Positions 60,408 to 62,387 of a stretch of DNA of 64,000 nucleotides are shown in pieces. Position 1 is the stretch's first letter; every line of letters begins with the position of its first letter. The notes below the pieces were generated by a model, which was not told the origin of the DNA, did not search any database, and was given only the letters and a program-made list of their open reading frames with translations. A program made the translations under genes and the position numbers. Origin of the DNA: Mesaphorura yosii (lineage: Eukaryota; Arthropoda; Collembola; Poduromorpha; Tullbergiidae); the NCBI GenBank assembly GCA_009869945.1, contig WIXG01000162.1:1-64000 (forward strand), written 5' to 3'.

Positions 60408-62387
60408 TCATCGCTTAGTTAGACGAATGTCAAGGTCGCAGAGTTGCTGCAGGAAGCCGTCATTAGGAAAGATCTGTCGTTTGCTTCTGTAAGAAAAGAA
60501 GCAGAATAATCACTCAAGGTCTGCTACTTGTGTTACTGATACAATTTCACTCAAACCTCACTAATTTTACAGCTTCGCTTGCGCTCATGTTCCTCTTCAT
60601 CATTAGAAAAGCAATCACGAGCGTTGCAGATCGACTGATTCCTTCACGGCAATGGACCAGCACTTTACCTACGAAAAGAATAGATTCAAGATCTTCCAAT
60701 TCAATTAGGTATTACACATGCTATGAACCGCTTTTCTCCAGCGCTCTCTCAATAAATGCGTTTGCAGTTTCGAAAAAGGGATGAAGTTGATAGTTCATAA
60801 TGTCCATGGCGGGTATTCCGTAGAATTCACAGATAAACTTGTGCTGTTTATAGTACTCCGAACTCGTGTCAACGTATCGCATCCAGTCAGTGCCCACCGC
60901 CGCATTTAGGATGTGGGTCACACCCATGCGCCGCAGAAGATCCACGTTTGTGGCTGTGTATCTAGTGCAAGAATAATCCCACATTGCACAATTCAGTTTT
61001 CTGTTTTCGGGCAGGCAAATCAGCGAAGCAGTCATTCTGCAGCGCTGTCAATGAAGCGAGATAAACATCGTGCTGCAATCAAAAAAGAACGAAAACCAAG
61101 CCAGCTGCGAACTGCAAACCTTGAAACTTAAGCCTACGGAGTGGATTTGCCGAAGACAAGGGCAGTGTGCAACACAATAACTTTGTCTCTCTGGTCTTTG
61201 TATGGAAGAGGAGGCCAAACTAAGAATCTGACGTGGGTTATCGGCATGCATTGCATGGGAAGGACACATGAGGTAAAGAAATGGCAAAGAATTAATTCTA
61301 GTAAAGCTATGAGAGGCAATTGCAAAATTCAAGCGGTCACTGCGGTGTTCTTGCACGATCGTAAATAAATTCGGGATTATTTTAAATATAGAAGCAAAGC
61401 CACATCTCGAATCTGAAGTCCAGTGTGACATTGATTTGACATCGGCAGTCAAATGAGAAAACGAAGACTGATCTTCACAGATAACTAGACCACCGTGCCA
61501 CAATAAAACAATGAAGTCGGCGGTAATCTTTTGTTTGCAAATATCCGGGAAACGATTGAGCAATGCAGGTTGGCGCTAGGCGTCAAGGCTATGATAATCC
61601 TTTGATTATATAAATTCATGAATGGGTCGGATTTTCATCGATATCACCCACGCACGTCGCGTCTCATCCTATCTCATCCTAACTCCAGTCAAGTACACCG
61701 AATTTATATAACAACTTTTCATTGATGAATCGCACCAACCTCCCTTCTGTAGCGCCTCATCAATGAACTGCGCAGCATCCTCAAAATAAAGGTAGAGTGG
61801 GAATCTTCGCTCGTCGTTGGCTTGTATTCCTTTGAAGGCGATACTATCTGAGCTATAAAACGCTTCTCGTGTCAGGACACAGCCGCCGCAGATTTCCTTT
61901 CTCAAACATGATGCACACGCCAAGGCTCCGTTAAGTACGTGATTAATTCCTTCCCAACGAAGTTTGCTGAGACTCAGAGCTGTGGTTCTGAAATTTCTCA
62001 AGAGGAGATTAAATTGAGTCCGGTCAATTGTTCCAGCACGAGCGTCCAAGCGTGCGCGTCCCAGCGTGCGCGTCCCAGCAAGATGTACAAACCAAGCCGC
62101 AGTCACCACACGAGCATTTTAATGAGTATCCAGAAGTCAGGTACACCACGGTCATGTCACGTGGACCATTTACCATTTAGTATTAGTGTATGAAAATGAA
62201 TACAAATGCAGAATTTTAGCTTGCTAATTCTACAAAGAACCTCAACTTTGAGTAAACGTAGAACTTACGCGTCGCCAATGAAGACCCGGTCGTACACTTC
62301 GTCGAATGGATTTCGAGGCACCGTCCAGTTTTCTCGAAGGATGCCTTTCAGGTCATCGGGCGTTGTGACCTTTTGTCTTGAACTCAT
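60408..62387 (-). CDS. VHR/DUSP3-like dual-specificity phosphatase with two alternative exons
   Basis: Atypical dual-specificity protein phosphatase, cytosolic/nuclear, no MAPK-docking domain. Exon 1 62387-62269 ([30 protein letters not shown]), exon 2a 61987-61740 or 2b 60961-60729, exon 3 60668-60557, exon 4 60486-60408. With 2a the protein is 185 aa, with 2b 180 aa; human VHR is 185 aa. Exon 3 carries the P-loop [11 protein letters not shown] (Cys129/Arg135 with 2a, Cys124/Arg130 with 2b; VHR numbering is Cys124/Arg130) followed by [13 protein letters not shown]. Exon 4 gives [14 protein letters not shown], matching VHR GPNDGFLAQLCQLN. General-acid Asp is Asp98 ([10 protein letters not shown]) or Asp93 ([10 protein letters not shown]). 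Exon 1 ends in phase 2 and exon 3 starts in phase 1; both 2a and 2b fit. Start is the first Met, near the usual DUSP N-terminal length. DUSP26/29 are the alternative family labels. Confidence 0.92.
60729..60961 (-). other. Alternative exon 2b of the phosphatase (cysteine-free loop version)
   Basis: 233 bp, acceptor GCACTAG, donor G|GTTCAT. It encodes residues 40-117: [19 protein letters not shown], then [16 protein letters not shown], then [17 protein letters not shown] and [13 protein letters not shown]. Same position, phases and fold segment as exon 2a, but strongly diverged, so the duplication is old. Asp93 takes the place of VHR Asp92. The donor is weak (GTTCAT). Confidence 0.82.
61740..61987 (-). 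other. Alternative exon 2a of the phosphatase (CxxC-x5-CxxC version)
   Basis: 248 bp, acceptor ATTTCAG, donor G|GTTGGT. It encodes residues 40-122: [14 protein letters not shown], then [13 protein letters not shown], then [20 protein letters not shown] and [15 protein letters not shown]. The last part is close to VHR (FYKDSGITYLGIKAND; FERAADFIDQAL). The four cysteines at 64, 67, 73 and 76 lie in the loop that in VHR precedes the general acid and are absent from exon 2b. The donor is non-consensus (GTTGGT). Confidence 0.82.

What the first reader, a model, noticed from the sequence alone, without database searches (positions are those of the whole stretch)
60408..62387. Frame-enforced mutually exclusive exons in a VHR-like phosphatase
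Two tandem exons (61740-61987 and 60729-60961) encode the same segment of the catalytic domain, each entering in phase 2 and leaving in phase 1. Skipping straight from exon 1 to 3 removes the general acid, and including both shifts the frame before the P-loop, so only one-of-two gives an active enzyme. The alternative segment covers the substrate-facing loop and the Asp loop, while exon 3 with [11 protein letters not shown] is constant. This predicts two enzymes with one chemistry and different substrate sites. I know of no description of such a switch in the DUSP3 group.
Basis: partly seen in the sequence, partly recalled or inferred. Interest (0 to 1): 0.88.

Follow-up and report, generated by a model that had tools for sequence, protein, structure and literature searches.

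The report
Two-way exon switch in VHR-like phosphatase
A small phosphatase gene in an unnamed animal genome, probably an arthropod, carries two alternative versions of the exon that shapes its substrate site, and the reading frame allows only one of the two at a time; this is a well-known kind of gene switch, apparently new for this enzyme group, and not yet shown in RNA.

Summary
On the minus strand, 62387-60408, lies a five-exon VHR/DUSP3-like gene. Exons 2a (61740-61987) and 2b (60729-60961) are homologous, encode the same catalytic segment, enter in phase 2 and leave in phase 1. Exons 1-2a-3-4 (185 aa) and 1-2b-3-4 (180 aa) are both open and score alike for Pfam DSPc (E 4.1e-32, 5.1e-32). 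Both exons together, or neither, give an early stop. Each exon is closer to human VHR than to its twin: 36/75 and 29/75 against 28/76 identical. Both products keep the general-acid Asp and the P-loop. The pair meets the published sequence criteria for mutually exclusive exons. Best reading: a frame-locked exclusive pair making two VHR-like enzymes. No RNA data or related genome could be examined, so use and conservation are inferred. The kind is known: 377 (60%) of human clusters are frame-shifting, ACP1 swaps exons in a phosphatase, and DUSP13 duplicates a whole phosphatase. The unusual part is a CxxC-x5-CxxC loop that 2a puts at the active-site rim.

The parts
62269..62387 (-). Exon 1, 119 nt, ATG to ...FIGDA, ends in phase 2; donor CGC|GTAAGT
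   Evidence: donor matches 7 of 9 consensus positions
61740..61987 (-). Exon 2a, 248 nt, alternative catalytic segment with Asp loop QANDERRF and an extra [13 protein letters not shown] loop; donor GAG|GTTGGT
   Evidence: PDB DUSP3 E 1.8e-8
60729..60961 (-). Exon 2b, 233 nt, alternative catalytic segment with VGTDWMRY rim loop and Asp loop PAMDIMNY; weak donor GCG|GTTCAT
   Evidence: PDB DUSP3 E 1.6e-9
60557..60668 (-). Exon 3, 112 nt, constant, P-loop [11 protein letters not shown]; enters in phase 1, leaves in phase 2
   Evidence: one of 2 matches to HC..[GA]..[RK][ST] in six frames of the window, the other (32409) runs into a stop and has no phosphatase-like surroundings
60408..60486 (-). 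Exon 4, 79 nt, constant C-terminus ...[18 protein letters not shown] and TGA stop
60375..60380 (-). AATAAA polyadenylation-like signal after exon 4
   Evidence: 2 A[AT]TAAA sites on this strand in 60300-62400, this one and ATTAAA at 62123 in intron 1; none between 2a and 2b
60962..61739 (-). Intron between 2a and 2b, 778 nt; too long for steric exclusion (limit of about 50 nt to the branch point, as used in PMC5740500)

Best explanation
One VHR/DUSP3-like phosphatase gene with a pair of mutually exclusive exons. An old duplication of exon 2 left 2a and 2b, both kept by selection. A transcript carrying exactly one of them reads through to the P-loop exon. A transcript with both or neither runs into an early stop and should be destroyed by nonsense-mediated decay. 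The two products share the N-terminus, P-loop and C-terminus. They differ across the segment that carries the active-site rim loop and the general-acid loop, so they should have the same chemistry and different substrate preference or regulation. Shown: exon structure, frame logic, homology, retained catalytic residues. Inferred: that both are spliced, that both fold and are active, decay of the failed products, and the substrate difference.
For: Both joined products match Pfam DSPc about equally (E 5.1e-32 with 2b, 4.1e-32 with 2a) and human VHR from residue 20 almost to the end (E 3.8e-42 with 2b; 4.3e-41 with 2a). In those alignments both keep the Asp of KANDTQEF, and the shared exons 3 and 4 keep HCREG.SRS and the R before I.PNDGF. 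The pair passes the WebScipio criteria: same splice-site type and phase, length difference 5 aa (default limit 20), relative score 0.206 or 0.198 (default threshold 0.15) (criteria in PMC3228551; values). In that paper 6 of 1705 fly X-chromosome genes had neighbouring exons with these features that were annotated as not mutually exclusive. 2a is open over 82 codons and 36/75 identical to VHR, no worse than 2b at 29/75, which does not fit a relic. In the own genome 2a matches only itself and 2b at E <= 10 (2 of 2 candidates); of the 10 matches of the 2b isoform at E <= 0.001, 4 are the gene's own exons and 6 are other phosphatase-like places, none with exon 1 (counts there are lower bounds). 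No convincing second copy of exon 1, 3 or 4 lies in 57000-64000.
Against: No RNA reads and no related genome could be examined. The donor of 2b matches only 4 of 9 consensus positions: of 115 GT sites on this strand in 60300-62500, 34 score 4 (2b's own included) and 22 score higher; its place is fixed by homology, not by strength. Codon statistics do not discriminate: true frames give 2a +10.4, 2b +3.7, exon 1 +3.9, exon 4 +1.7 and exon 3 -0.2 bits, while an antisense frame of 2a gives +9.0 and wrong frames of exon 3 up to +6.1. No RNA pairing between introns beat the shuffles (z +0.4 to +0.7, that is, weaker than shuffled). The two fragment structure predictions were of low confidence (mean pLDDT 58.7 and 47.2), so folding of either form is untested.
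Confidence: 0.8

Rival explanations
1. One of the two exons is a dead duplicate: the gene is an ordinary single-isoform VHR-like phosphatase, and the other exon is a relic that still looks like an exon.
For: No expression data. Unusual tetracysteine insertion in 2a; weak donor in 2b.
Against: 2a and 2b are only 28/76 identical, so the duplication is old, yet both are open, both keep matching-phase splice sites and each is closer to human VHR than to the other. Of sampled 248-nt stretches of the window, coding included, 5.7% are open in a given frame and 16.4% in any of three.
Confidence: 0.08
2. The exons belong to different transcript ends: 2b is reached from a promoter inside the 778-nt intron, or 2a ends a truncated transcript.
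For: The frame of 2b stays open for about 29 codons upstream of its acceptor and contains an ATG (ORF 60721-61047). The DUSP13B form TMDP-L1 is driven from an intronic promoter in human cells (PMC11274236, passages).
Against: By eye the open stretch before 2b does not resemble the exon 1-encoded ...[11 protein letters not shown]. No A[AT]TAAA lies between 2a and 2b. Both exons fit exon 1 and exon 3 in phase.
Confidence: 0.07
3. Two tandem genes were collapsed by the assembly so that exons of separate copies now seem to be in one gene.
For: The assembly is fragmented (93.0 Mb in 1127 contigs). The 2a-2b divergence would suit two paralogues.
Against: No convincing second exon 1, 3 or 4 near 2a and no close copy elsewhere in the held genome. 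Two haplotypes would not be 37% identical.
Confidence: 0.05

Closest known systems
ACP1 (low-molecular-weight PTP), exons 3/4
   Same: Mutually exclusive splicing of two exons in a small cysteine phosphatase gives fast and slow isoforms with different roles (PMC3785452, passages).
   Different: A different PTP class (class II). That its fold is unrelated to VHR is recalled. The pair here is in a VH1-like phosphatase and covers the general-acid loop.
DUSP13 (MDSP/TMDP, DUSP13A/B)
   Same: Member of the DUSP3 clade (PMC7828806, passages) with two phosphatases from one locus; listed as a tandem duplicated exon event (PMC9741552, passages; PMC11274236, passages).
   Different: There the event covers the whole protein and the two forms are coded by separate exon sets; here one internal exon is swapped and the P-loop exon is shared.
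Frame-shifting mutually exclusive exon clusters in general
   Same: Length not divisible by three, so joint inclusion gives a non-functional transcript; 377 (60%) of human clusters (PMC5740500, passages).
   Different: This gene family was not found among described cases in my searches; no RNA support here.
Human VHR/DUSP3
   Same: Full-length relative of both products, E 3.8e-42 and 4.3e-41.
   Different: No tetracysteine loop in the 5 DUSP3 chains aligned.

Membership tests
Mutually exclusive exons (WebScipio criteria, PMC3228551) | Similar length (difference up to 20 aa) | tested here: met
   83 versus 78 residues
Mutually exclusive exons (WebScipio criteria, PMC3228551) | Same splice-site type and reading frame | tested here: met
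   GT-AG, phase 2 in and phase 1 out for both
Mutually exclusive exons (WebScipio criteria, PMC3228551) | Sequence homology, relative score at least 15% | tested here: met
   0.206 and 0.198; z 12.0
Mutually exclusive exons (RNA criteria, PMC5740500) | Junction reads from each exon bridging the other; no joining reads unless they shift the frame | not testable with these tools
   No RNA data; joint inclusion is frame-breaking by sequence
VHR/DUSP3 group of atypical dual-specificity phosphatases | DSPc domain with HCxxGxxRS P-loop and upstream general-acid Asp | tested here: met
   (role of the Asp recalled)
VHR/DUSP3 group of atypical dual-specificity phosphatases | Closer to DUSP3/13/26/DUPD1 than to MAPK phosphatases | tested here: met
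   With 2b: DUSP3 147.2 bits, DUSP13 118.5, DUPD1 109.9, DUSP26 103.6, DUSP10 70.6. With 2a: DUSP3 143.9, DUSP13 106.8, DUSP26 101.1, DUPD1 94, DUSP10 70.3. No tree was built.
VHR/DUSP3 group of atypical dual-specificity phosphatases | Phosphatase activity on pTyr/pThr | not testable with these tools
   needs protein

The most novel reading that the evidence does not exclude
The switch exchanges a plain VHR active-site rim for one holding a CxxC-x5-CxxC tetracysteine loop that binds a metal or forms disulfides, so that one gene makes a plain and a metal- or redox-gated version of the same phosphatase.
Probability: 0.15. Interest if true: 0.7.

Novelty: new member of a known kind. Interest (0 to 1): 0.42.

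Why it matters
If both forms are made, the gene offers a natural pair of VHR-type enzymes with identical P-loop and ends and a swapped rim and general-acid segment. That is a clean test of what sets substrate choice in atypical dual-specificity phosphatases, which lack the MAPK-binding domain of the MAPK phosphatases (PMC7828806, passages).

Tried and rejected
Chance similarity: rejected. Second gene copy near 2a: no convincing further copy of exon 1, 3 or 4 in 57000-64000; weak tblastn hits only, the best being exon 3, E 0.021, at 57796-57846 on the other strand. Recent duplication: introns 1, 2 and 3 show no similarity above 100 shuffles per pair. RNA pairing between introns: nothing above 20 single-base shuffles per pair, 3 pairs. 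Mosaic hypothesis, that 2a kept the VHR Asp loop and 2b the VHR rim loop: identity to VHR in the two halves is 2a 16/41 and 20/34, 2b 15/41 and 14/34, permutation p 0.12, not supported. Relatives in other collections: none in genome contigs with the 2a peptide (46 pattern matches, none confirmed), none in viral contigs with the 2b isoform (5 pattern matches, none confirmed); both are poor places for an animal gene. AlphaFold on the two exon fragments, 2 sequences each: too low in confidence to use; no fold search was made.

Organism: not named. 66 Chitin_bind_4 places against none for nematode cuticle collagen (no control genome rang either) point to an arthropod. A tardigrade SAHS query gave none (the tool warns that an empty answer shows nothing), COX1 none; lipocalins gave 7 places, of which I read one, of no help. 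No tRNA in the window; GC about 38-49% per 2 kb. Other phosphatases of the genome: DSPc gave 25 matches; I read 3 regions holding 6 of the 25, the rest I did not classify. Zinc or CxxC in atypical phosphatases: the 6 of 9 papers listed were off topic by title and abstract start. ACP1 and WebScipio papers came from searches (5 listed; 8 of 20 listed).

Full report
What is there. The minus strand from 62387 to 60408 holds a five-exon gene: 1 (62269-62387), 2a (61740-61987), 2b (60729-60961), 3 (60557-60668), 4 (60408-60486), with GT-AG introns of 281, 778, 60 and 70 nt. Joining exon 1 to either 2a or 2b and then to 3 and 4 gives an open protein of 185 or 180 aa. Joining both stops at codon 137, and skipping both stops at codon 41; the stops lie 304 and 111 nt before the last junction, so both products should be decay targets by the usual 50-nt rule (recalled).

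What it is. Both products score for Pfam DSPc, at E 4.1e-32 (2a) and 5.1e-32 (2b). Both hit human VHR/DUSP3 first in the PDB (E 4.3e-41 and 3.8e-42), followed by DUSP13, DUSP26 and DUPD1, ahead of the MAPK phosphatases (best 60 of 80 and of 81 sequences shown). Each exon alone finds DUSP3 (E 1.8e-8 for 2a, 1.6e-9 for 2b). The aligned columns keep the Asp of the KAND loop, the HCREG-SRS loop and the Arg before I-PNDGF in both products. That these are VHR D92, C124/R130 and R158, and that the loop after LNAAEG sits at the active-site rim, is recalled; the numbering fits the chain positions shown.

Age and constraint. 2a and 2b are 28/76 identical (z 12.0 against 500 shuffles), 2a and VHR 36/75, 2b and VHR 29/75. 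At the nucleotide level the exons do not exceed shuffles, and the introns show no residual similarity. The duplication is therefore old, and neither exon has picked up a stop or lost its splice sites. In the 93.0-Mb own genome 2a matches only itself and 2b at E <= 10 (2 of 2 candidates). Of 10 matches of the 2b isoform, 4 are this gene's exons; the 6 others are phosphatase-like places without exon 1. I read three other phosphatase regions, which hold 2 of those 6 places and 6 of the 25 DSPc matches; by recalled motifs they look like MAPK-phosphatase and slingshot types. The remaining places were not classified, so a second VHR-type gene is not strictly excluded, only one with a 2a-like exon.

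Test as mutually exclusive exons. The published criteria are similar length, same splice-site type and frame, and a homology score of at least 15% (PMC3228551, passages and section 13). The pair has a 5-aa difference, equal phases and a score of 0.206 or 0.198. In that study 6 of 1705 fly X-chromosome genes held neighbouring exons with these features that were annotated as not mutually exclusive. Here joint inclusion is also ruled out by frame. RNA evidence, the remaining criterion, cannot be had with these tools.

How it likely works. Exclusion is unlikely to be steric (778-nt intron) or by splice-type incompatibility (GT-AG throughout). It is most simply explained by competition between the two exons for exon 1 and exon 3, with decay of failed products. 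The donors of 2a (6 of 9) and 2b (4 of 9) are weaker than that of exon 1 (7 of 9), but exon 3 is also weak (5 of 9), and 22 of 115 GT sites in the region score above 2b; weak donors would fit regulated exons but prove nothing. No RNA pairing stood out. A 14-bp tandem repeat, 2.7 copies, lies 55-92 nt upstream of the 2a exon (62042-62079) and could be a regulatory element; untested.

What differs between the products. 2a holds QANDERRF, close to the VHR Asp loop, but replaces the rim loop by [13 protein letters not shown], a CxxC-x5-CxxC pattern in a stretch eight alignment columns longer than VHR. 2b holds a VHR-like rim (VGTDWMRY) and a diverged Asp loop (PAMDIMNY). The idea that each exon kept one VHR loop did not reach significance (p 0.12). 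Whether the tetracysteine loop binds metal is a guess from the pattern.

Known or new. Frame-shifting clusters are the majority in human (377 of 629, 60%; reads joining the two exons exist for 83 of the 377; PMC5740500, passages). ACP1 shows an exclusive exon swap in another phosphatase family (PMC3785452, passages). DUSP13 is a whole-protein case in the same group (PMC9741552 and PMC11274236, passages). I found no paper on an internal exon pair in the DUSP3 group by searches (10 listed; 15 of 34 listed; 9 listed; 0); I saw titles and abstract starts only, apart from the passages cited. The library is open-access only, so this is weak evidence of absence. Verdict: a real and well-formed new member of a known kind; RNA use and conservation unproven.

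Noticed in passing
62042-62079: Short GC-rich tandem repeat (14-bp unit, 2.7 copies) in intron 1, 55-92 nt upstream of exon 2a; possible splicing element.
   Followed up: no
61048-61575, minus strand: Stop-to-stop frame of 175 codons in the intron between 2a and 2b; no Pfam match at E 0.01.
   Followed up: partly
51468-52289, minus strand: BEACH domain with PH_BEACH (Pfam E 6e-27 and 1.6e-7); the long frames upstream (52213-57015) may belong to the same gene (inference; the two of them scanned, 52213-54114 and 54173-55591, had no Pfam match).
   Followed up: partly
9758-12271, minus strand: NTF2 domain at 11666-12271 (E 2e-11) with a glycine/arginine-rich frame downstream at 9758-10240, a layout like G3BP (recalled).
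   Followed up: no
14346-18806, minus strand: Uninterrupted frame of 1486 codons rich in Ser, Gln and His; not scanned against Pfam.
   Followed up: no
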